From Pseudanabaena galeata CCNP1313 (lineage in GTDB: Bacteria; Cyanobacteriota; Cyanobacteriia; Pseudanabaenales; Pseudanabaenaceae), in the NCBI RefSeq assembly GCF_029910235.1, contig NZ_CP112874.1:3100001-3164000 (forward strand): a stretch of DNA of 64,000 nucleotides, read 5' to 3'. Numbering within the stretch: position 1 is the first letter of the stretch; each line of letters opens with the position of its first letter. The notes under the pieces are model-generated. The model ran no database searches, had not been told where the DNA came from, and saw nothing but the letters and a program-made list of their open reading frames with translations. This document shows, piece after piece, positions 11,547 to 61,808 of this stretch. The position numbers and the translations under genes are program-made.

Positions 11547-13277
11547 CTACTGTTTATATCCTATGGCTCTGTTTCTGCCTTGCTCTTTAGCCTTATATAA
11601 AGCGCGATCTGCTTTAATCAATAGATCTAAACTAGAAATATCCTCAGACTCCATACACGCAACCCCACAGCTTAATGTCACAACATTATTGGTCATTGAA
11701 CTTTTATGAGGAATATTGAGGCTACGCACATTTACAACAATTCTTTCCGCTACAGCTAAGGCTGATTCATAGCTAGTATTGGGAAGAATCACTGCAAATT
11801 CTTCTCCTCCATATCGACCTGCAAGTTCGCCACTACGTACAGATTTATTAATGGCTTGTGCTACTAATTGTAAGCATTTATCTCCATCCTGATGGCCATA
11901 GCTGTCGTTATATAGCTTAAAGTGGTCAACATCACAAATGAGGACGCAAAGGTCTTGCTTTGTCTGAAAGTTTTTCATCAAAAAGCGATCAAAATAACGT
12001 CGATTGGCAATTTGCGTTAACTCATCAATATTTGATGCATAACGAAACTTTTCGCCAAGTTGAATAATCGAAATTACGCTACTCAATAAAAATGAAGACA
12101 AAGCAGGAAATATTGATAACCAAAAACTAAACAAAAAAGAAATATAACTAATTAAGACTAATCCCATCATTGATATGACAAGGAAGGTTAGGATGCCTGC
12201 AAAAAATTGGGCTTTGACAAAACTGCCTCCTCTCAGAAAGCTTGAAATGCCAGCTACACCAATAGAAGCCCATATAAGAACCCATATCCCTTCCACCCAC
12301 TTTGGATAGGTCTGTAAAAATGGACGGTTATTTATGGCTCCATTAATAATTTGTGATATCAAATTGGCATGGATATGTACACCAGGAATTGATCCATAAG
12401 GAGAAAAGAAGAAATCTCGGAGACTTTCTGCGGTAGATCCGATTAATACAATCCGATTTTCAAACAGATTCTGTGGATATTTACCATCAAGAACATTTGT
12501 CATGGAAATTTCCTGAAAACATTCCGTCTGACAACGATAATTGAGCAAAATTTGGTATCCACCATTGTCAGTAGCACCATAACCAGTTTGGTGAGAACCT
12601 AATGGGGTAAATCTAGATTTTCCTAAAACAACTGTGTGATCTTTGTCAGAAGATGTGTCAGGAGTTATACCTTTGGAAGCCAAATAATTTAGGGCGATTT
12701 TAATTGAGAAGCTATAAATTATCTCGCCATTAGGCTTCTCTATAGACAGTAGTCCTCGTCTTACCGTACCATCCTGATCGACTACAGTATCTACAAAACC
12801 AACTTGATTTTTATAATCGATATAAGGCGGCGGTAAAACGCTCGGATTAACAAATTTTTCAGCAACAATTAGGTTAGGAGTAGCTTGAAAAACCTTTTTT
12901 AATTCGTCAAAACCTGGCTCTACTGGCAGATTTCGATATACATCTAAACCAATTACTCTTGGATTTCCTGCCTTGACTTGCGTAATTAATTTTGCAACTA
13001 CATTATCTGGGAAGGGCCATCTCCCAACTCTTGCAAGATCACGATCATCAAAAGTGACCATGACTATGCGAGAGTCTAAACCTTCAGATGTTCTTAGTTG
13101 GAAAAGTTTGTCTAAAAATTTCAACTCTAATAGTTGAAACAATCCTAATACTTGTAGCGTGCAAATTAGAATCACGATTAAAACTGGAATCGTAAATATA
13201 CTGGATTGAAGTTTATTTACGGTTCTAGGTATGGCTTTATTTAACAAGCGTAACGGATTCAGATGATTGAACGACAT
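11547..13277 (-). CDS. CHASE2-GGDEF diguanylate cyclase
   Basis: 576 residues from the ATG at 13277. TM1 lies near 28-48, an extracytoplasmic CHASE2 sensor domain at about 60-310 (ending in FENRIVLIGSTAESLRDFF and GVHIHANLISQI), three membrane helices at about 325-410, and a GGDEF domain from about 420. The active site reads RYGGEEF (GGEEF at 490-494), compatible with c-di-GMP synthesis. Five residues upstream the product-inhibition site is RSGE instead of RxxD, so feedback inhibition may be weak. The start overlaps the end of the DUF928 gene by about 40 bp, so the two are one transcription unit. Confidence 0.93.
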   Translation of the reverse strand: MSFNHLNPLRLLNKAIPRTVNKLQSSIFTIPVLIVILICTLQVLGLFQLLELKFLDKLFQLRTSEGLDSRIVMVTFDDRDLARVGRWPFPDNVVAKLITQVKAGNPRVIGLDVYRNLPVEPGFDELKKVFQATPNLIVAEKFVNPSVLPPPYIDYKNQVGFVDTVVDQDGTVRRGLLSIEKPNGEIIYSFSIKIALNYLASKGITPDTSSDKDHTVVLGKSRFTPLGSHQTGYGATDNGGYQILLNYRCQTECFQEISMTNVLDGKYPQNLFENRIVLIGSTAESLRDFFFSPYGSIPGVHIHANLISQIINGAINNRPFLQTYPKWVEGIWVLIWASIGVAGISSFLRGGSFVKAQFFAGILTFLVISMMGLVLISYISFLFSFWLSIFPALSSFLLSSVISIIQLGEKFRYASNIDELTQIANRRYFDRFLMKNFQTKQDLCVLICDVDHFKLYNDSYGHQDGDKCLQLVAQAINKSVRSGELAGRYGGEEFAVILPNTSYESALAVAERIVVNVRSLNIPHKSSMTNNVVTLSCGVACMESEDISSLDLLIKADRALYKAKEQGRNRAIGYKQ

Positions 13278-13971
13278 GATCTTTGAGCAGTTTTTCCCAA
13301 GCTTGAGAAATTGTTGAATTGTCTGGGGATTGCTTTTGCAATCGATAGAGTTCATTGATCATGTCATACCAAATGCCATTTTCACCATATATAGCTACTC
13401 GAGCAATTGGTGATGCATTTCGCAGCTTAGTGGTGAGGGCTTGAGTTGGGGTAGTGCGTTGCACCCAACCTGCGATCGCGGGGCTGTCTGGTCGGAGCGC
13501 TTTCCCACAGATGAATGTCATTGTCCATTTATATTTTTTATTCGCAATAAGATCGGGAGCTTGACTGGGGAAATTAATCTTAACAAATCCAACATCTGAT
13601 GATAAAGGTGAAAAAGTTTGGTAAACTTGTTCGCCATCTTCACTTTCAAGACTAAAAAATATTTGCCTTGCACTGCTTTTTGTTTTAAATATCAAAATTT
13701 CTGGGCGACTAGAAGTTGTTAAACCATAGTTTGTCTGTGGCAATATTGGTGATGTTTTCTTGTTAGGTTGGGCTGAGTCGAACAAACAACTTTGGTCACG
13801 AGTTGCTGCTCCAGTTGTAGTTTTAGGCGCTCTACCACTGGGAGGCTTAAAATTAACTGTTTGAGCCAACATTACTTCAGGAGTAAAAGCCAAAGGCAGT
13901 AAAATAGCTGTTAATGTCGAAAGGCAAATCTTAGGCATCATTGATAACATCATTGATAAATTTAAGTACAT
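13237..13971 (-). CDS. DUF928 family secreted protein
   Basis: 244 residues from the ATG at 13971, which follows a GAGGAT-type ribosome site; a TTG 15 bases earlier is less likely. A signal peptide covers about 1-31 and ends in VMLAQ. The mature start PPSGRAPKTTTGAATRDQSC is the DUF928 hallmark, and the domain continues to about 215. Its function is unknown. It overlaps the CHASE2-GGDEF gene and lies near the CHAT and TpsA genes, an association I recall from other cyanobacteria. The role in signalling at the cell surface is inference from location only. Confidence 0.88.
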   Translation of the reverse strand: MYLNLSMMLSMMPKICLSTLTAILLPLAFTPEVMLAQTVNFKPPSGRAPKTTTGAATRDQSCLFDSAQPNKKTSPILPQTNYGLTTSSRPEILIFKTKSSARQIFFSLESEDGEQVYQTFSPLSSDVGFVKINFPSQAPDLIANKKYKWTMTFICGKALRPDSPAIAGWVQRTTPTQALTTKLRNASPIARVAIYGENGIWYDMINELYRLQKQSPDNSTISQAWEKLLKDHVVQSSESVTLVK

Positions 13972-13989
13972 CTTTAGTATCCTCAATCG

Positions 13990-14370
13990 AAAGAAAATAT
14001 TTATAATTAATATAGGAATTCTAAATTATTTGAAGAAAAGAAAAGAGCATTAAGTCCTGTGTTATTAGCTTTATCTTTACTAATGTCCATTTAGGATTGC
14101 TATACTTAACGGCAGAAGATTAACGGCAAAAGACAAAGATCGGTAGAAATAATGATTTTTATCCTTGCTTTTTAGTGGGAGTAAAAGTAGTATTAGATAC
14201 AATAACTAATATTAATCATAATCTAGCAATTAAAATTTAGCTATATCCAAAAGTTATACAAAAGATATATAAATCTTGAAAATCCCTATATCTATTGTTT
14301 GTTTGATACAATTTTCTTCCTAATAATATATTTATTTTATATAATTGTTTTTTGTAAGATAAGTGATATA
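13990..14370. promoter_or_regulatory. AT-rich leader upstream of DUF928-CHASE2
   Basis: About 380 bases without a credible gene, strongly AT-rich. It must hold the promoter of the minus-strand DUF928-CHASE2 pair. I cannot fix a -10/-35 pair with confidence. Confidence 0.4.
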
Positions 14371-14377
14371 GCAAAGC

Positions 14378-14465
14378 AAGTTTTGCTTAGGCCATAAAAC
14401 CCAAGAAGTGAGAGGTGGCACAGATTACCACCCCTCACTTCTTGGGTTTTGGTTTGTACTAGCTA
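14378..14465. repeat. Family A repeat, copy 6 (decayed core)
   Basis: Arms ACCCAAGAAGTGAG/CTCACTTCTTGGGT intact, but the tip is GAGGTGGCACAGATTACCACC, so this copy has lost the GGCGGCGC tip. The flank GCAAGTTTTGCTTAGG matches the family. Confidence 0.75.
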
Positions 14466-14590
14466 ACTCTTTTTTTGCTATAGATAAAAGTGAACTATTT
14501 ACTATAGCAATCCTAAATGAATCTAGAGAAGGTAAAGCTTATAACAAGCAGCTTAAGTACACTTATCTTTTTTATTGCGCTGTAAGAAAA

Positions 14591-14704
14591 CTTGAGTTCG
14601 ATATAGCCATTTGCGGCGTGCAAAGCACGCCGCAAATGGCGAAAAATGGGAAGAATCGCTAAGCGATTCTTCCCATTTTTCGCTTTCGTCGAACTGACGT
14701 TAAG
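14591..14704. repeat. Family B two-hairpin repeat, copy 2
   Basis: Inverse orientation to copy 1. Hairpin I carries a compensated change (ATGGGAAG with CTTCCCAT instead of ATGGTAAG with CTTACCAT). It may terminate the minus-strand tpsA-CHAT unit. Confidence 0.85.
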
Positions 14705-14757
14705 AAAGGAATTAAGCAAGCCTTTCATTGTCATATTTTGTCATTAAGTATTGAAAC

Positions 14758-17403
14758 TTAAAGCCAGCTACCTACTAGTACAAAAGCAGCCCAGTAATAG
14801 GGATGTCGGTATTGTGAATCTTTAAGTATTGAAAGTTGAGATTTTTGTAATGCTTCTGCTTTAGAAATAGTAGGTTGGCTGACGAGAATGTCATAGAAAT
14901 TTGACATTAGCTGACTGGTTGAGTCATCGTTGACTGCCCATAAGCTACCAATCGTACTCCTCGCACCAGAGCGTATTGCAATACCAGCAAGTCCCAAGAT
15001 GGCTTTCACATCACCTTCGGCAGTTTTACAAGCACTGAGTACAAGTAACTCTAGAGGTTGTTTGCGATTGTCGGTGCGATCGCGCAAAAAACTATAGAAA
15101 TCTGGGACAGTGACGCGATCATCCCAAGCCAGAATAAATGTTGAGTCTGGATCGGAGCTAAACTGTCCATGCGTCGCTAGGTGGACTATAGCTGTCCCTG
15201 CCTCCGATAGACCTTTCTGTAAGTTGTTTTTAGTAAAATTGCTATTTAATTCTAAGTCAGTGGGAATTTGCTTGGAGATTTGGTTAGCTTCAAACTTTAC
15301 CCCTCTTAACTCAGTAAAACCTTGCCTAGCTTCTGAAAGTCCGCCTAGCCAAACTTTCAGTTGTCCTCGATCTAGCGGCTTTGCTCCTAATATTTGGAGT
15401 CCTGGGGTTAAAGCCATACTGTACTTTTCGATCGCATATTGCTTGCCATCATACAAAGCTGCCATGGGCAGATTTCGCAATGAGCCATCCAGAACAAATA
15501 CTAAATTTTTGATTTGCTTTTCGGCGAGGGCTGTTTCTGAAGGGCGGATGATCAGGTCGTATAGTTTTTGCGATATTTTTAAGCGAATACGGTCAGAAAA
15601 TGCTGGGTTCAGAGCTTGAAGAAATTGATCAGCACTATCATCTAATTCTGTCTGCGATATATTCGAGGAAAAATACTGTAGAGGCTCTTTAGGTAATGAG
15701 AGGATCAATGCTAGGCGATCGCTTAAGATTGCTGAATAGATCACTGCGGAATTGGAGTCAACAGCATCAATTTGCTGTGGTTGGATATCGAGACAAGCTG
15801 CTCGAAAGAAATTTTCTAGTTCTACGACTTGCAGTGACTCAAGGGTAAGCCGCGCTTGGATCAGGTTTTCTTGAGATGGTTTATCGCTTTTTAGTAATAG
15901 AGAGACGAGTTCACGATAAATTGGCTCGATGCGATCGCGAAAGGCAAACTGAACTTCTGGAGATGTCGCAACTAGCTCTCGACGCAGGTTTTGGATATTC
16001 TGCACAGCTTGGCGATACGCCTCAATTGCGAGGTCAGATTTGCCCTGTTTGTTTAAGATGCGACCTGAGAGCCATTGCCAACGATAGAGTAAATCATCGG
16101 CGCTTATTGATTGAGCAAGCAATAGCGCCCGTTGGGAAAGCTGATAAGCCTCCGTAAGTTGTTGATTTTGTTCGTAAAGTCCACCTAAAGCACCAATTGC
16201 AAAGGACTCGGCTCTGCGGTCTTGAATGGATTGAGCCTGCCGCAACGCGACAGTTAATAACTCGGCAATCCTTGATGTGGTAATTGGACGAGCATTTGCA
16301 TCTTTAATCTTCATCAAGCATTCGCTCAAATTGATGCTCAGATAAACACTGCGACGGCTAGGCTGCAATTTCGTCAGCTCTGGTTCGATCTGTTGCCATA
16401 GTGGTTGAACTTGTTGGAGACGATCGCTTTCAACGAGCAAACTTAAATTTAAAGCCTGTGCTTCTAAGCGCAGAATGCTTACAGGCGAAGTTTTTGCGGC
16501 TTGTTCATATTTTTGTAAAGCGCCATCTATATCTTTGATAAACCTGAAGTTATTGCCAATGCTGATTAATGTGGCACTGCTCTCGGCAGGATTGTTTAGG
16601 TTTTGAGCGATCGCTAAGCTTTGTTCGAGGATTTTTTGAGACTTGGCAAGATCTCCAAGGGTCTGTAGGGTCGTGCCGAGGCTATGCAGTGCTACAGATT
16701 TAAGGAGTGAGTCTGGTTGCTTTTGGAGACGTAATTCGATCGCTTCTAATTGTTCGCTCGCTAGACGAAATAGCCCTAAAGCTTGCAGTGCTTGTGCTTG
16801 ATTGGTTTGACTTCCTAATAGCCCAATTTCGTCATCGAGTTGGGTGTATCGTTCCGCCGCTATTTTCCAATTGTCTAGGGCAGCTTGGGGATTGCCCATA
16901 GCAAGTCGCAGGCTACCCTGTGTATTGCTGATTCTTGCCGCGATCGCTAGTCCTTCTTTACTCGCTAATAGTTGTCTATCCAGTAAATTTGCACTCTGGG
17001 CTATCGTTTCTTGAGCTTGATCCCACTCGCCAAGTTCTTGATAAGCCATTGAGAGATAATTTAGGCACAGCGCCTCATTTAATTGAGCGCGTAATTTTTC
17101 AGTTACGGTATTTTGGCGAAGACGATAGGTGAATAGAGCTTTTTGCCATGTGGCTACGGCTTCGGTAAGGTTGCCTTGTGCATAGAGGCGGCTTCCTTGC
17201 TCTAGCAATGAAGGCTGATTGGACTGGGATAATTGCGTTGATAGGTTGTTGGGATTATCCGCAGTTTGGTTACGGGTAGCGATCGCAGGTTGGATAAATG
17301 CGATTGAGCAGTAGGTAGCGATCGCCAACATCAACAGGAATGTCAGTTTCTTTTTATTAATTATTTGCCAGAACTTTCGAGCAGTAGCGATCGCAAATTT
17401 CAT
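14758..17403 (-). CDS. Exported TPR-CHAT caspase-like protein
   Basis: 881 residues. A signal peptide or anchor lies at about 20-42 (hydrophobic stretch ending QPAIATRNQ). TPR-like helical repeats fill about 60-480. A CHAT (caspase HetF-associated with TPRs) domain fills about 590-881, with catalytic H745 in HLATHGQF and C792 in LVLSACKTAEG, so the dyad is intact. CHAT domains are C14-clan cysteine proteases or protease-like folds. The gene starts 15 bases after tpsA stops, so it is co-transcribed with the exoprotein. An exported CHAT protein implies a periplasmic or surface substrate, and TpsA is the obvious candidate (inference). Confidence 0.92.
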   Translation of the reverse strand: MKFAIATARKFWQIINKKKLTFLLMLAIATYCSIAFIQPAIATRNQTADNPNNLSTQLSQSNQPSLLEQGSRLYAQGNLTEAVATWQKALFTYRLRQNTVTEKLRAQLNEALCLNYLSMAYQELGEWDQAQETIAQSANLLDRQLLASKEGLAIAARISNTQGSLRLAMGNPQAALDNWKIAAERYTQLDDEIGLLGSQTNQAQALQALGLFRLASEQLEAIELRLQKQPDSLLKSVALHSLGTTLQTLGDLAKSQKILEQSLAIAQNLNNPAESSATLISIGNNFRFIKDIDGALQKYEQAAKTSPVSILRLEAQALNLSLLVESDRLQQVQPLWQQIEPELTKLQPSRRSVYLSINLSECLMKIKDANARPITTSRIAELLTVALRQAQSIQDRRAESFAIGALGGLYEQNQQLTEAYQLSQRALLLAQSISADDLLYRWQWLSGRILNKQGKSDLAIEAYRQAVQNIQNLRRELVATSPEVQFAFRDRIEPIYRELVSLLLKSDKPSQENLIQARLTLESLQVVELENFFRAACLDIQPQQIDAVDSNSAVIYSAILSDRLALILSLPKEPLQYFSSNISQTELDDSADQFLQALNPAFSDRIRLKISQKLYDLIIRPSETALAEKQIKNLVFVLDGSLRNLPMAALYDGKQYAIEKYSMALTPGLQILGAKPLDRGQLKVWLGGLSEARQGFTELRGVKFEANQISKQIPTDLELNSNFTKNNLQKGLSEAGTAIVHLATHGQFSSDPDSTFILAWDDRVTVPDFYSFLRDRTDNRKQPLELLVLSACKTAEGDVKAILGLAGIAIRSGARSTIGSLWAVNDDSTSQLMSNFYDILVSQPTISKAEALQKSQLSILKDSQYRHPYYWAAFVLVGSWL

Positions 17404-17418
17404 GTTTTTTATCTCTAT

Positions 17419-19950
17419 CTATTTATTTGGATTTGTAGGACAAATAACGGGCGATCGCCACACTGGCTCTGATGGCGAGTCCGCATAGGCTAATAGTTTC
17501 AAGTTTCCATTTGCATCTTTTTCCCATCCTTGGGCTTCGATTTGGGGGATAGGTTGCGTGGCAACTGGTTGAGTGGACTGAGTGGCAACTTGATTTGAAG
17601 TGGTTTGAGCCGTGGGGTTTGATTGTGTCGAGGGGATCTCGGACAATCGTAAATCTCGCCAAATCGCCTGACTGGAGATTGTTTGGGTGGCATCAGTTGG
17701 AGCGCCGCCACGTCCAGTAGAGATTAGCTCATTACCTCGAAAGCGATCGCAAGCCGCCACAATTTGGTTATTGGTATCGGTTAAGTTATCAGGAAGTTTG
17801 ACTAAACCTCGGCTGAGATCGTTATCAGGCGATCGAATTTCCACCAGCCCATTAAATTGTGTGCCTAAAGCTGAGGTTGCCGTAATGTCACTGAAAGGAG
17901 TCAAGCGATTCAACGATTGAAACCCGATCACACCTTTAGCGGTGATAATCACTTGTCCACCGAAGCTATTCAATGAGTTAGCAGTGATATTGCTATTTTC
18001 TAAGGGAACTGCCACCAAAAAGTCGGTGTTAATCCGAATGTTTCCACCTGTCGCATTACCTAAGGCATTGGTGGAGATACTGCTCGCATTTCGCAAAAGT
18101 GTCAGTGTGGAGTTTATGTTAATGTTGCCGCGAGAACCACTCAACGAATCAATATTTATCCGTCCACCATTAAGCAAGATAGATGGCGAAGTAATGGTAA
18201 TGTTACCCACTGAACCACTTCCAGGGAAGGTGGTACTATTACTGCGAAAGTTGCTTGCACTGATAAGACCACCATCACGTACAGTCAATTGATCGCTATT
18301 AACGACAATATCGCCTCCATTTCCCGTACCAAAAATAGCATTGGCAAATAAACCACTGCGTCCCCGCTCAACCTGTCCAGAGATATCGATTAACTTCGCA
18401 TTCACCACTAAGTTCCCTGCGTTGCCACTACCAGCAGTCCCAACAGAAACCTGCGCTCCGTTGTTAATAGATAGATTGTCTGATGTAATTGTCAGTATGC
18501 CCCCATTTCCTGTTGAGCCTGCTTCTGCTGCGGATGAGATACCTGTCGGAGAATTATTAGTCCCGAATAGGCTGATGTTTTTTGCGATAACCTCTAGATC
18601 ACCTGCATTACCCCTTCCAAAAGTACTAGTTATGAGACTCGCACCATTCAAGATTTGCAGGTTATCAGTAGTGACTGTAATTTTGCCACTATTGCCCGTC
18701 GCCGTTCGGCGCAGAACTTGAGAGAGTATACCACTGGGATAGAAAGCTGGAAGAATAGCAGATCTCCCCGATAAAATTATTTCACTAGCATTAACTTTGA
18801 TCTCACCAGCATTCCCAGCACCCAATACCCCAGCACTAATTTGCGCTCCGTCTATCACTTCTAATTTTTTTGTAGCGATCGTAATATTGCTGCCATTTCC
18901 CGTAGAAGTTGATGATGTGTCTGTAAATATACCACTAGCGAAAGGGCGGTTAGATTCTCCCCTTGCTGAGAGAAGTTCGGTAGCGCGGACAAATATCTCT
19001 CCTCCATTGCCATTTCCTAGGGATGAAGATAGCAGAACTGAACCATTATTTAGGGTTACTTGTCTACCTTGCACCTGAATGCTGCCTCCACCATTGATCC
19101 CGCTTACATCCACTAAAGCAGCTTGCTCCAGTCGAATATTGCCAAGATTAGGAGCATTATCGTAATTTAATAGCCATCCACTAGCAGTTTGCGCGATCGC
19201 CACAAATCCGCTCCCCACAACGCTGCCAAGTTCGATGCGTCCACTATCTGCGGTCAATTTTGCGCCTTGAAGATTTATATCTCCACCAACAAAAGCCAAA
19301 GTACGCCCACTTGATACACCCAAAGGTGGGTTGGGAAATCGCAAAATTTCTAGAAAATCAGGGGGTCTATAATCTAGCCCAACGCCGAGACCCTGTGCGG
19401 CGATCGCGCCATTAGTTGTGCCGTTAAACTGTAAGCCAACGGGAGTACTTACTAATAATAGAGGTGAGGTTGTTTGTGTACTTGCATTAGCTCTAAATTC
19501 ACTCCCATCTAGAAATCTAACGCTATTAGCTGTAGTCGCTAAAAATGAGCCTCCTATGTCCAAACTCGCATTTTGCCCAAAAACGATTCCATTAGGATTA
19601 ATCAAAAACAAGTTGGCATTATTGGCTCTAATTACCCCATCAATGCTAGATATATTACCTCCAGTTATCCGAACTAGAATATTTTGAATAGCGAGTGGAT
19701 TATCAAAAAATGCTGTCTCACCATTAATTAAGGAAAACTGGCTAAAACTGTGAAACAAGTTAGTATTTGCTGCTGTCCCTCCTGTAATAGTGAAAAGTGG
19801 TCCTCCACCAACAATAGAATTAGTTGGCAAAGTAGTATCAGGTACAATTTGTGCAAATACAAGTTCAGGAATGCTAATTACAGAAAGATTAGCTATGGCA
19901 AAGCCCAAGATCGTCATATTCCCAAAAAAGTTTTGCCATAAAATCTTCAT
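17419..19950 (-). CDS. TpsA-type exoprotein with filamentous-hemagglutinin N-terminal domain
   Basis: 843 residues. The signal peptide ends near 33 (LVFAQIVPD). The two-partner-secretion domain (about 35-200) has NLFHSFSQFSL, the secretion-motif region ITGGNISSIDG and NANLFLINPNGIVFGQNA. From about 250 to 720 the sequence is a repetitive beta-helix (units like GNGGNI.I....L...NGA.IS). A Q/T/S-rich linker follows, and the tail ends in two cysteine-flanking segments with CPTNPNK. It should be secreted through the TpsB pore encoded divergently. The role could be adhesion, surface coat or contact signalling. It is the first gene of the unit with the CHAT protein. Confidence 0.92.
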   Translation of the reverse strand: MKILWQNFFGNMTILGFAIANLSVISIPELVFAQIVPDTTLPTNSIVGGGPLFTITGGTAANTNLFHSFSQFSLINGETAFFDNPLAIQNILVRITGGNISSIDGVIRANNANLFLINPNGIVFGQNASLDIGGSFLATTANSVRFLDGSEFRANASTQTTSPLLLVSTPVGLQFNGTTNGAIAAQGLGVGLDYRPPDFLEILRFPNPPLGVSSGRTLAFVGGDINLQGAKLTADSGRIELGSVVGSGFVAIAQTASGWLLNYDNAPNLGNIRLEQAALVDVSGINGGGSIQVQGRQVTLNNGSVLLSSSLGNGNGGEIFVRATELLSARGESNRPFASGIFTDTSSTSTGNGSNITIATKKLEVIDGAQISAGVLGAGNAGEIKVNASEIILSGRSAILPAFYPSGILSQVLRRTATGNSGKITVTTDNLQILNGASLITSTFGRGNAGDLEVIAKNISLFGTNNSPTGISSAAEAGSTGNGGILTITSDNLSINNGAQVSVGTAGSGNAGNLVVNAKLIDISGQVERGRSGLFANAIFGTGNGGDIVVNSDQLTVRDGGLISASNFRSNSTTFPGSGSVGNITITSPSILLNGGRINIDSLSGSRGNININSTLTLLRNASSISTNALGNATGGNIRINTDFLVAVPLENSNITANSLNSFGGQVIITAKGVIGFQSLNRLTPFSDITATSALGTQFNGLVEIRSPDNDLSRGLVKLPDNLTDTNNQIVAACDRFRGNELISTGRGGAPTDATQTISSQAIWRDLRLSEIPSTQSNPTAQTTSNQVATQSTQPVATQPIPQIEAQGWEKDANGNLKLLAYADSPSEPVWRSPVICPTNPNK

Positions 19951-20272
19951 ATTAATAAAACCTTTATTACGTAACGCAATTTATCTATTATTCTGGTACT
20001 TCTATATCAACTTAAATTTAATTTACTGCAACGAAATAAGCCATTAGCTTTTAATATTATTGCTATATGTTGTATAGCAATCTTAAATGTGTTGTGAGAG
20101 TGCGCCCCAAAGGGGCTTACTCTCACAACCCTCCAAATCTTACAAATCATTTAGGATCGCTATATAGCGGCTCTAGTTTGGTTTGAAGAAACATCCCCTA
20201 AGGATCGCTGTATTGCTGGAAAATTAGTTTTGTAATCACTAGCAAAACTTATATGTGAGGAGATATATCTAG
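19951..20272. promoter_or_regulatory. Divergent tpsA/tpsB intergenic region
   Basis: 322 bases between the divergent tpsA and tpsB starts; it must hold both promoters. A family C repeat occupies 20073-20164. GAGGAG about 12 bases before the tpsB ATG is its ribosome site. Confidence 0.6.
20073..20164. repeat. Family C repeat, copy 1
   Basis: Starts TATAGCAATCTTAAAT and ends ATTTAGGATCGCTATA. The core is TTGTGAGAGTGCGCCCC with a mismatched right arm. Confidence 0.85.
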
Positions 20273-21970
20273 ATGCAGTTACTGTGGAGACGCATGTTTT
20301 TTTGCGGACTGATCGCTATATTTGGTTGTTTGTTAGAAGATAATTCTATTTTAGCTCAATCTACTATACCGTCAAATCTAGTTCCATCTGTGCCTGTCCG
20401 ACCAGAAGAATCTCCACGACGACTACCTCCTGTTGACCAACTACTAACTCCAAACAGTCCTCAAGTCGAACCAAATCGGGAAATACCTGACTCAACCAAT
20501 ACTTTTGTTGTGCAGGAGTTTCGAGTAATTGGTAGTACTGTGTTCTCGGCAGATGAGTTAGCTGCGGCTGTAAAGTCTTTTACTAATCGTCCCATCAGTT
20601 TCAGTGAATTATTGCAAGCAAGGGCGGCGATCGCTGATTTATACATTCGTAACGGATACATCACATCAGGCGCTTTTATCCCTCCTCAAGAGACGAATAA
20701 TGGCAATATCACAATTCAAGTCGTTGAAGGTAAGCTCGAAGAAATTCAGATCACAGGGACAAATCGCGTTAATCAAAGCTATATTCGCTCGCGTCTAGAG
20801 ATAGCAACGGGCGCTCCTTTAAACCGCGATCGCTTGCTCAATGCTTTGCAATTATTGCAGCTCGATCCTTTATTCTCGTTTGTTTCTTCAGAACTCAAAA
20901 CTGGCTCACAACTAGGAACAAGTATCTTAGCGGTTAAGGTTGACGAGGCAAATTCCTTTAATGTCAGGGCAAGCCTTGATAATTATGCGTCTCCTAGTGT
21001 TGGGCAGTTATCGCGACAGATTGAAATAAGCGATCGCAATTTACTGGGCTTAGGAGATCGCATTATCGCCACCTATGGCAATACCGATGGTCGAAATCAG
21101 TATAATCTCAGCTATACATTGCCAGTTAATGCCTATAACGGAACCTTGAGCTTTTTGTTTAGTAATACCAACAGCAATGTGGTCGAATCCGAATTCAAAA
21201 TTCTGGATATTTTCTCCAACTCTACAAATTACGAATTAACTTTTCGCCAACCACTCGTTCAAACTCCTGCCCAAGAATTTGCTCTCGGTTTGACCGCATC
21301 TCATAGCGACAGCTTTACAACCTTGCTCAAGTTGCCAATTCCCCTCTCCGCAGGTTCGGATGATTTCGGTAAAACGAAGCTCTCAGCTTTACGTTTTTTC
21401 CAAGACTATACGCAGCGTAGTAGTGAGGATGTGATTGCCTTGCGATCGCAGATTAGTTTGGGGCTAGGTGGTTTTCTAAATTCTACGGTTAATCTCAAAT
21501 CACCAGATAGCAGTTTTGTCGCTTGGCGTGGACAGTTGCAATACATTCGGGCTTTGGCCGAAGACACTTTGCTGATCGTGAGTGGCGGACTCCAGTTTGC
21601 CGATCGACCTCTGCCAGCCGCAGAAAAATTTAGTCTGGGAGGTTCTCAAAATGGTCGAGGTTATCGACAAGATGTTCTAGTTGGCGATGGGGGTATGAAT
21701 GTTTCCTTAGAAGCAAGATTGCCGATTGTGCGTGTTCCAGAATTACAAGGACTGTTGCAACTTGTGCCTTTTATTGATTTAGGAAGTGTATGGAATAATG
21801 AAGGCTCTGCTTCTACTAGCAACTGGATACTAGGAACAGGATTAGGACTGCGTTGGCAGATGGGTGATCGGCTTACCGCAAAACTAGATTACGGGTTACC
21901 CCTAATTTCCATAAGGAATAATCGTCAAGACAGTAGCATCTATTTTTCACTGTCATACAAACTATTTTAA
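20273..21970 (+). CDS. TpsB outer-membrane transporter (ShlB/FhaC/HecB family)
   Basis: 565 residues. The signal peptide ends near 29. A proline-rich linker (40-75) is followed by POTRA domains (about 80-150 FVVQEFRVIGSTVFSADEL and 155-230 IQVVEGKLEEIQITG). A 16-strand beta barrel from about 235 to the end contains the lid-loop signature FSLGGSQNGRGYRQD (the VRGY/L6 region) and finishes with an aromatic residue (FSLSYKLF), as barrel proteins do. It exports the TpsA protein encoded divergently. Its TAA stop coincides with the TTAA end of a family B repeat. Confidence 0.94.
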   Translation: MQLLWRRMFFCGLIAIFGCLLEDNSILAQSTIPSNLVPSVPVRPEESPRRLPPVDQLLTPNSPQVEPNREIPDSTNTFVVQEFRVIGSTVFSADELAAAVKSFTNRPISFSELLQARAAIADLYIRNGYITSGAFIPPQETNNGNITIQVVEGKLEEIQITGTNRVNQSYIRSRLEIATGAPLNRDRLLNALQLLQLDPLFSFVSSELKTGSQLGTSILAVKVDEANSFNVRASLDNYASPSVGQLSRQIEISDRNLLGLGDRIIATYGNTDGRNQYNLSYTLPVNAYNGTLSFLFSNTNSNVVESEFKILDIFSNSTNYELTFRQPLVQTPAQEFALGLTASHSDSFTTLLKLPIPLSAGSDDFGKTKLSALRFFQDYTQRSSEDVIALRSQISLGLGGFLNSTVNLKSPDSSFVAWRGQLQYIRALAEDTLLIVSGGLQFADRPLPAAEKFSLGGSQNGRGYRQDVLVGDGGMNVSLEARLPIVRVPELQGLLQLVPFIDLGSVWNNEGSASTSNWILGTGLGLRWQMGDRLTAKLDYGLPLISIRNNRQDSSIYFSLSYKLF

Positions 21971-24168: not shown

Positions 24169-24233
24169 TATAGCAATCCTAAATAGGTTAGTGCGCCCCT
24201 TCGGGGCGCACTAACCTATTTAGGATTGCTATA
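24169..24233. repeat. Family C repeat, copy 2 (perfect hairpin)
   Basis: Perfect 31-bp stem with loop TTC. Both ends are the family terminus TATAGCAATCCTAAAT. The shortest complete copy. Confidence 0.9.
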
Positions 24234-46905: not shown

Positions 46906-46997
46906 TATAGCAACCCTAAATGTGTTGTGAGAGTGCGCCCCAAAGGGGCGCACTCTCACAACACTCCAAATCTTCCAACTCATTTAGGATCGCTTTA
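46906..46997. repeat. Family C repeat, copy 3
   Basis: TATAGCAACCCTAAAT, core GTGAGAGTGCGCCCC-AAA-GGGGCGCACTCTCAC, right end ATTTAGGATCGCTTTA. It overlaps the stop codon of the esterase gene on the minus strand. Confidence 0.85.
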
Positions 46998-61653: not shown

Positions 61654-61808
61654 GACTTGGGCTTGGAGACCAAGCCCCTACCTTTACAAATATAGCAGTC
61701 CTAAATCATTTGTAGATTTTTGGGTTTGTGGAAGCGCACCCCGAAGGGGTGCGCTTCCACAAACCATTTAGGATTGCTATATGTAGGGATTTGGTCTCCA
61801 AATCCTCT
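61650..61808. repeat. Family D repeat, copy 2, interrupted by family C
   Basis: GGGCTTGGAGACCAAGCCCC..., loop TTTACAAATATG, and TGTAGGGATTTGGTCTCCAA... are separated by the family C unit at 61691-61781. Removing that unit and one TA restores a D element that aligns base for base with the loop of copy 1. Confidence 0.85.
61691..61781. repeat. Family C repeat, copy 5, inserted in family D
   Basis: Ends TATAGCAGTCCTAAAT and ATTTAGGATTGCTATA (15 of 16 complementary); inner hairpin GTTTGTGGAAGCGCACCCC-GAA-GGGGTGCGCTTCCACAAAC. TA duplicated at the borders. Confidence 0.9.

What the first reader, a model, noticed from the sequence alone, without database searches (positions are those of the whole stretch)
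11547..21970. TpsA/TpsB - exported CHAT protease - DUF928 - CHASE2 cyclase cluster
Five neighbouring genes encode only exported or membrane proteins: a secreted beta-helix exoprotein, its outer-membrane pore, a CHAT caspase-like protein with a signal peptide (H745 and C792 kept), a DUF928 protein, and a CHASE2-GGDEF enzyme. tpsA and CHAT are 15 bp apart, and DUF928 and CHASE2 overlap. The combination suggests that an extracellular cysteine protease or sensor acts on the exoprotein while CHASE2 converts an envelope signal to c-di-GMP. I recall the association from other cyanobacteria but know of no described function.
Basis: partly seen in the sequence, partly recalled or inferred. Interest (0 to 1): 0.72.

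Follow-up and report, generated by a model that had tools for sequence, protein, structure and literature searches.

The report
Exported CHAT proteases paired with exoproteins
In cyanobacteria, long surface proteins of the two-partner secretion pathway are encoded beside, or fused to, an exported caspase-like (CHAT) protease, which suggests a widespread and apparently undescribed way to process surface proteins from the periplasm or to sense through them.

Summary
All five genes are at the stated places, with strong Pfam matches, and CHAT keeps H745/C792. The pairing is general. In 19 cyanobacterial genomes from 13 families, 31 of 127 TPS exoprotein genes are fused to CHAT in one ORF. Of the 96 free ones, 41 have a CHAT gene within 5 kb (5.3 expected), and every genome has at least one link. 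TpsB-CHAT-TpsA also occurs in two betaproteobacterial MAGs.

"Extracellular protease" is probably wrong. Free TpsA ends in a two-cysteine tail (73 of 90), like the periplasmic disulfide anchor of HMW1/HxuA. All 31 fusions lack it and carry CHAT there. In three natural TpsA-TpsB fusions the tail sits directly before the periplasmic POTRA domain. CHAT therefore most likely works at the periplasmic end of the exoprotein, as LapG does on CdrA (no LapG-family gene was found here). c-di-GMP is not conserved: CHASE2 partners carry many different outputs. DUF928 folds like MtxA, which also sits beside a CHASE2 cyclase.

Unexpectedly, 15 proteins in 12 genomes join a GT2 glycosyltransferase, an internal signal sequence, a TPS exoprotein and CHAT in one chain.

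No paper in the held library describes the association. Cleavage is untested.

The parts
11547..13355 (-). CHASE2-GGDEF membrane sensor / diguanylate cyclase (GGEEF present, RxxE instead of the RxxD inhibitory site); start more likely near 13277
   Evidence: Pfam CHASE2 7e-68, GGDEF 5e-50; GGEEF context; start in relatives L060 and L072
13237..13986 (-). DUF928 protein, exported: predicted beta-sandwich plus C-terminal helices; ATG start probably at 13968
   Evidence: Pfam 2e-47; AF2 pLDDT 82.7; best structural match MtxA C-terminal domain 4z29, Z 9.3
13987..14757 (.). 771-bp gap with a terminator-like hairpin (14400-14446, - strand) and palindromic dispersed repeats
14758..17403 (-). TPR-CHAT protein with N-terminal signal sequence (about residues 1-43), TPR region (about 60-480) and CHAT domain (610-879)
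   Evidence: Pfam CHAT 5e-55, TPR_12 1e-22; signal test
14767..15576 (-). CHAT (clan CD caspase-like) domain; H745 at 15169-15171, C792 at 15028-15030
   Evidence: dyad present in 104/104 and 103/103 aligned homologues
17419..19950 (-). TpsA exoprotein: signal peptide, TPS secretion domain (residues 33-292), beta-helix to about residue 706
   Evidence: Pfam TPS 5e-62, adhes_NPXG 3.5e-23; beta-helix end in AF2 model
17422..17832 (-). two-cysteine C-terminal tail of TpsA (C734, TGRGGxP motif, C837); predicted mostly disordered
   Evidence: C734 in 100% and C837 in 99% of 74 aligned tails; 73 of 90 free TpsA, 0 of 31 fusions; low pLDDT
20273..21970 (+). TpsB outer-membrane transporter (POTRA_2 at 20504-20731, ShlB/Omp85-type barrel), divergent from tpsA
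   Evidence: Pfam ShlB 1.5e-27, POTRA_2 7e-21

Best explanation
The locus encodes a two-partner secretion system with its own exported cysteine protease and a membrane sensor. TpsA is threaded through TpsB and folds as a beta-helix on the surface. Its two-cysteine C-terminal tail stays on the periplasmic side and holds the protein in the pore. The TPR-CHAT protein is exported to the periplasm, docks through its TPR repeats, and uses His745/Cys792 to cut the retained end of TpsA (or a partner bound there), so that the exoprotein is released, matured or turned over. In the fused relatives the CHAT domain itself forms the periplasmic end, so docking repeats and tail are no longer needed. DUF928 is a periplasmic partner of the CHASE2 sensor and reports envelope state. 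In this strain the output is c-di-GMP; in relatives it is cAMP/cGMP or phosphorylation. Shown here: the gene content, the association, the fusions, the mutual exclusion of tail and CHAT, the conserved dyad, and the signal-like N-termini. Inferred: periplasmic location, disulfide formation, proteolysis, the substrate, and the role of DUF928-CHASE2.
For: Association: 31/127 TPS genes are CHAT fusions and 41/96 free ones lie within 5 kb of CHAT (5.3 expected); all 19 genomes and 13 families show at least one link. Order TpsA>CHAT>DUF928>CHASE2 on one strand occurs in L123, L148, L158, L165 and the window. TpsB, CHAT and TpsA are neighbours in two betaproteobacterial MAGs, L076 and L077. 0 of 112 TPS-bearing Cyanobacteriia lack CHAT, against 18 of 34 without TPS. 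Place: the tail is in 73/90 free and 0/31 fused TpsA (Fisher 6e-17). In TpsA-TpsB fusions the tail is joined to POTRA. HMW1/HxuA keep a disulfide anchor in the periplasm and LapG cuts CdrA's periplasmic tail (PMC5422565). The tail is predicted disordered. Docking: TPR in 38/44 split CHATs but 2/26 fusions. Catalysis: H in 104/104, C in 103/103. Export: 42/44 signal-like N-termini. The TPS-linked CHATs lie, apart from one second fusion type, in one starred clade of the sampled CHATs. DUF928: MtxA-like fold, Z 9.3; mtxA is followed by a CHASE2-cyclase gene (PMC4439547).
Against: No cleavage data exist, and CHAT domains can be inactive scaffolds. About half of the free TpsA have no CHAT within 5 kb, so a paired CHAT is not required in cis, though every genome has others. 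Fusions lack the tail, so the tail cannot be the only substrate. The Arg of GRGG is replaced by S, T, A, N or Q in several tails, so no single Arg cleavage site is conserved. 23 of 28 other CHATs also look exported, so export is not specific to TPS partners. The CHASE2 output varies.
Confidence: 0.5

Rival explanations
1. Envelope signalling relay. TpsA is a surface sensor; engagement is transmitted through its retained end to CHAT, which cuts DUF928 or another periplasmic protein, and CHASE2 passes the signal to whatever output domain it carries. CHAT is then a signalling protease and TpsA is not its substrate.
For: CHASE2 outputs are interchangeable (GGDEF, GGDEF-EAL, cyclase, HK, STK, CHAT-like), as expected of a receptor fed by a common periplasmic signal. 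DUF928-CHASE2 is a tight gene pair (27/48 DUF928 genes within 1.5 kb of CHASE2, 19 within 150 bp). Fusions tie CHAT to TpsA without the tail.
Against: Many TPS-CHAT loci have no DUF928 or CHASE2 within the fetched flanks. No direct CHAT-DUF928 fusion was seen.
Confidence: 0.27
2. Contact-dependent toxin or cell-death device. CHAT is the effector carried at the C-terminus of an exoprotein and delivered to neighbours, or it kills the producer when triggered.
For: CHAT sits at the C-terminus, where CdiA-type exoproteins carry toxin domains (PMC5422565). Caspase-like domains act in cell death elsewhere (general knowledge).
Against: The C-terminal domain is always the same CHAT (31/31 dyads kept), not a varied toxin repertoire. 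No constant small immunity-like gene was noticed beside it, but this was not searched systematically. Split CHATs have their own Sec-type signals and no transport route to another cell.
Confidence: 0.1
3. CHAT is a non-catalytic periplasmic scaffold or chaperone for exoprotein secretion; the TPR region or CHAT fold keeps the exoprotein competent for TpsB.
For: TPR proteins are often chaperones (general knowledge); CHAT is beside or inside the cargo.
Against: His and Cys are invariant in all aligned family members, which a scaffold would not need. About half of the exoproteins have no CHAT nearby.
Confidence: 0.09
4. No functional link: CHAT, TPS, DUF928 and CHASE2 are expanded families that fall together by chance or hitchhiking.
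For: CHAT is very abundant (29 in this genome).
Against: 41 observed against 5.3 expected neighbours, at least two separate fusion lineages, the same gene order in several families, presence in another phylum.
Confidence: 0.04

Closest known systems
CdrA-LapG-LapD of Pseudomonas aeruginosa
   Same: TPS exoprotein whose C-terminal tail stays in the periplasm; a periplasmic cysteine protease acts on it; c-di-GMP is involved (PMC5422565)
   Different: The protease is CHAT (clan CD, caspase-like), not LapG (Peptidase_C93, none found in this genome); it is encoded beside or fused to the exoprotein; CHASE2-GGDEF is an enzyme with a periplasmic sensor, not a LapD-type receptor, and its output varies between species
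HMW1/HxuA disulfide-anchored TPS exoproteins
   Same: two cysteines near the C-terminus of TpsA enclose a retained loop (PMC5422565)
   Different: cyanobacterial tails are about 110 residues with a TGxGGxP motif; in fusions CHAT replaces the tail; in three cases the tail is fused to TpsB
TPR-CHAT proteases (HetF type; Csx29 of type III-E CRISPR; recalled from general knowledge)
   Same: TPR repeats plus CHAT with a His-Cys dyad
   Different: exported, tied to TPS genes, and in fusions TPR is replaced by a beta-helix; no solved CHAT structure was recognised by sequence
MtxA-CHASE2 of Magnetospirillum
   Same: periplasmic Ig-like plus helical domain encoded next to a CHASE2 cyclase; DUF928 model matches 4z29 with Z 9.3 over 149 residues
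   Different: no sequence match at E 1; MtxA is not known to be linked to TPS or CHAT
Subtilisin SphB1 and FHA of Bordetella
   Same: a dedicated protease matures a TPS exoprotein (PMC5422565)
   Different: SphB1 is a surface autotransporter subtilisin encoded elsewhere in the genome

Membership tests
Two-partner secretion (type Vb) | TpsA with N-terminal signal peptide and TPS domain | tested here: met
   PF05860 5e-62, TIGR01901 3.5e-23; signal-like start ending VFA-Q
Two-partner secretion (type Vb) | cognate TpsB with POTRA and Omp85-type barrel | tested here: met
   PF08479 7e-21, PF03865 1.5e-27 in the divergent neighbour
CHAT peptidases (clan CD) | CHAT domain with His-Cys dyad | tested here: met
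   PF12770 5e-55; H745/C792 kept in all aligned homologues
CHAT peptidases (clan CD) | proteolytic activity | not testable with these tools
   needs biochemistry
CdrA-LapG type exoprotein release | LapG-family (Peptidase_C93) protease | tested here: not met
   PF06035: 0 matches in the own genome, control genome rings
CdrA-LapG type exoprotein release | C-terminal TpsA tail retained in the periplasm | tested here: inconclusive
   two conserved Cys, mutual exclusion with CHAT, junction to POTRA in TpsA-TpsB fusions; location itself not measured
CdrA-LapG type exoprotein release | c-di-GMP control of the protease through a LapD-type receptor | not tested
   LapD not searched for; CHASE2-GGDEF present but its output varies in relatives
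CDI / polymorphic toxin exoproteins | variable C-terminal toxin domains | tested here: not met
   all 31 fusions end in the same CHAT domain with both catalytic residues
CDI / polymorphic toxin exoproteins | adjacent immunity gene | not tested
   no systematic search of small neighbours
MtxA C-terminal domain fold (for DUF928) | Ig-like sandwich followed by helical bundle | tested here: met
   AF2 model with pLDDT over 90 in the core; 4z29 Z 9.3, rmsd 3.6, 149 aligned, next match Z 6.2
MtxA C-terminal domain fold (for DUF928) | detectable sequence homology | tested here: inconclusive
   profile of 44 DUF928 proteins finds no MtxA chain at E 1

The most novel reading that the evidence does not exclude
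Cyanobacteria (and some betaproteobacteria) use a previously undescribed class of two-partner secretion in which a CHAT protease forms or serves the periplasmic end of the exoprotein. In its extreme form, one polypeptide carries a GT2 glycosyltransferase at the cytoplasmic end, an internal signal sequence, the exoprotein and a CHAT protease, so that modification, export and processing of one surface protein are built into a single chain.
Probability: 0.4. Interest if true: 0.82.

Novelty: new variant of a known kind. Interest (0 to 1): 0.68.

Why it matters
CHAT proteins are among the most expanded unexplained families in cyanobacteria (13-38 copies in most of the larger genomes counted), usually discussed as caspase relatives inside the cell. 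Tying a large subfamily to two-partner secretion gives them a location, a partner and a testable substrate. It also suggests that regulated release of surface proteins through a periplasmic cysteine protease arose more than once, with an unrelated protease. The DUF928-MtxA match offers a function (CHASE2 partner) for a domain of unknown function. The GT2-TPS-CHAT chains would be a new design for making a modified surface protein.

Tried and rejected
GRGG as a conserved Arg cleavage site: rejected, because the Arg is replaced by S, T, A, N or Q in several tails while the glycines and cysteines stay. One transcript of five genes: not supported in the window, since TpsB is divergent and a terminator-like hairpin lies between CHAT and DUF928. 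c-di-GMP as a system property: rejected. LapG itself: no match. Sequence search of solved structures with CHAT found nothing specific, with the full CHAT profile only TPR proteins in the rows shown, with TpsA nothing. AF2 of the TpsA tail gave low confidence, so disulfide geometry could not be read. Beyond the MtxA match, DUF928 resembles only generic FN3/Ig sandwiches. Literature searches for CHAT with two-partner secretion, filamentous hemagglutinin or DUF928 returned nothing; the only paper naming DUF928 is about WD40 proteins. Papers on cyanobacterial caspase homologues do not mention TPS or hemagglutinin partners.
Full report
WHAT IS THERE. The window lies in a 5.84-Mb cyanobacterial genome; the closest relatives of its CHAT gene are in Pseudanabaena and a strain labelled Phormidium tenue. 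TpsA and CHAT are 15 bp apart on the minus strand. DUF928 overlaps the CHASE2-GGDEF gene. TpsB is divergent. Between CHAT and DUF928 are 771 bp with a long terminator-like hairpin and palindromic repeats, so two transcription units on this strand are likely.

OWN GENOME. Pfam searches found 29 CHAT, 6 TPS, 6 DUF928, 10 CHASE2 and 6 ShlB matches. Of the six TPS genes, three have a separate CHAT gene within 3 kb and two are fused to CHAT; only one (L041) has none nearby. The two fusions are single reading frames of 1768 aa and 1341 aa, with TPS at the N-terminus and CHAT at the C-terminus. One of them is again next to a CHASE2 gene, a DUF928 gene (found with a local profile) and a divergent TpsB gene.

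SURVEY. TPS genes over the cut-off in 19 Cyanobacteriia genomes were fetched with flanks and annotated with local profiles. Of 127 TPS genes, 31 are TPS-CHAT fusions. At least one more is cut by the fetched region (L191), and L174 looks like a fusion broken in a low-complexity stretch. Of 96 free TPS genes, 41 have a separate CHAT gene within 5 kb and 22 within 500 bp; random placement with each genome's CHAT number would give 5.3 and 2.4. Counted by locus: 35 of 76 against 4.4. Every genome and all 13 families show a fusion or a close pair. The order TpsA > CHAT > DUF928 > CHASE2 on one strand occurs in four surveyed loci besides the window. In two betaproteobacterial MAGs, TpsB, CHAT and TpsA are neighbours, with CHAT and TpsA overlapping by about 35 bp (L076, L077).

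WHERE CHAT ACTS. Free TpsA proteins end in a tail of about 110 residues bounded by two cysteines with a TGxGGxP motif; in aligned tails the cysteines are 100% and 99% conserved. 73 of 90 intact free TpsA have such a cysteine pair; none of the 31 fusions does (Fisher 6e-17). AlphaFold2 ends the beta-helix at about residue 706 and leaves the tail mostly disordered. The review PMC5422565 describes such a disulfide loop in HMW1/HxuA as a periplasmic anchor that locks the C-terminus in TpsB, and states that LapG cuts CdrA's periplasmic tail at low c-di-GMP. Three proteins here fuse TpsA to TpsB in one chain (L147, L155, L164), and the tail sits immediately before the POTRA domain, which is periplasmic in known Omp85 proteins. 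Since CHAT takes the tail's place in fusions, CHAT too should be at the periplasmic end. Split CHATs have signal-like N-termini in 42 of 44 cases, which agrees. TPR repeats are found in 38 of 44 split CHATs but only 2 of 26 fusions, as expected if TPR provides docking that a covalent link makes needless. Twenty of 31 fusions have a proline-rich linker before CHAT.

CATALYSIS AND DESCENT. His745 is kept in 104 of 104 and Cys792 in 103 of 103 aligned homologues, including all fusions. In a tree of 101 CHAT domains, TPS-linked CHATs fall in one starred clade that splits into a mainly fused and a mainly split branch; a second fusion with its own TPR region (L181/L185) has a different origin. The sample of unlinked CHATs is small, so this is a statement about the sampled set.

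SENSOR MODULE. DUF928 lies within 1.5 kb of CHASE2 in 27 of 48 cases, 19 within 150 bp. CHASE2 partners carry GGDEF (window), GGDEF-EAL, class III cyclase, histidine kinase, Ser/Thr kinase, a CHAT-like N-terminal domain or an AAA-like domain. The DUF928 model (pLDDT 82.7) has one match that stands out, the C-terminal domain of MtxA (Z 9.3; the next is 6.2). In magnetotactic bacteria mtxA is followed by a conserved gene with CHASE2 and adenylate cyclase domains (PMC4439547). This is independent support for DUF928 as a periplasmic CHASE2 partner. It is a fold match only; no sequence match was found.

GT2-TPS-CHAT CHAINS. Three surveyed fusions have a GT2 glycosyltransferase in front of the TPS domain. 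A search with that part found more; twelve further genes fetched in full contain GT2, TPS and CHAT in one frame of 1556-1924 aa, with an internal hydrophobic segment ending A-x-A before the TPS domain in those inspected. Together that is 15 proteins in 12 genomes of three families. GT2 DxD-type and ED-type motifs are kept in most. Dedicated glycosyltransferases of TPS exoproteins are known from HMW1C/EtpC (general knowledge), but not, to my knowledge, fused to the exoprotein.

MECHANISM AND JUDGEMENT. The best-supported reading is a TPS exoprotein with its own periplasmic protease, working like CdrA-LapG but not a member of it: the protease family differs and LapG was not found. The step from location to cleavage of the tail is inference. 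The main rival is a relay in which CHAT cuts DUF928 or another periplasmic partner when the exoprotein is engaged. The held library has no paper on the association; subscription journals and domain databases may list such architectures.

Noticed in passing
L120:4371-9239, L135:8209-13677, L202:5069-11512, L233-L244: 15 proteins (12 genomes, 3 families) join a GT2 glycosyltransferase, an internal signal-like segment, a TPS exoprotein and a CHAT domain in one reading frame.
   Followed up: partly
L147:9297-13622, L155:5527-9909, L164:8934-13325: TpsA and TpsB fused in one polypeptide (TPS domain, beta-helix, two-Cys tail, POTRA_2, ShlB barrel), followed by an overlapping CHAT gene.
   Followed up: partly
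L115, L122, L128, L132, L170: CHASE2 proteins with an N-terminal, weaker-scoring CHAT domain, mostly beside DUF928 and TPS genes.
   Followed up: no
L211:5538-8051: A protein with Trypsin_2, adenylate/guanylate cyclase and CHASE2 matches next to DUF928 and a TPS-CHAT fusion.
   Followed up: no
L181:5124-9947 and L185:4932-9788: A second, separately derived TPS-TPR-CHAT fusion in which the TPR region is kept.
   Followed up: partly
window 14088-14519, 20073-20164, 24169-24233, 46906-46997, 61691-61781: Dispersed palindromic repeats with ends like TATAGCAATCCTAAATG, 14 matches against 0.37 expected; both intergenic gaps of this cluster hold them.
   Followed up: no
L178:4364-6988: A TPS-adjacent CHAT whose signal carries a twin-arginine-like motif (SWSRRSLLG), suggesting Tat export in that lineage.
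   Followed up: no
L075:9614-14274: In a Lentisphaeria MAG an exported-looking TPR-CHAT gene is followed by a CHASE2 histidine kinase, without TPS within the locus.
   Followed up: no
L113, L123, L137, L148: Tandem arrays of three to six tpsA genes; in three of the four a single CHAT gene lies downstream in the fetched stretch.
   Followed up: no
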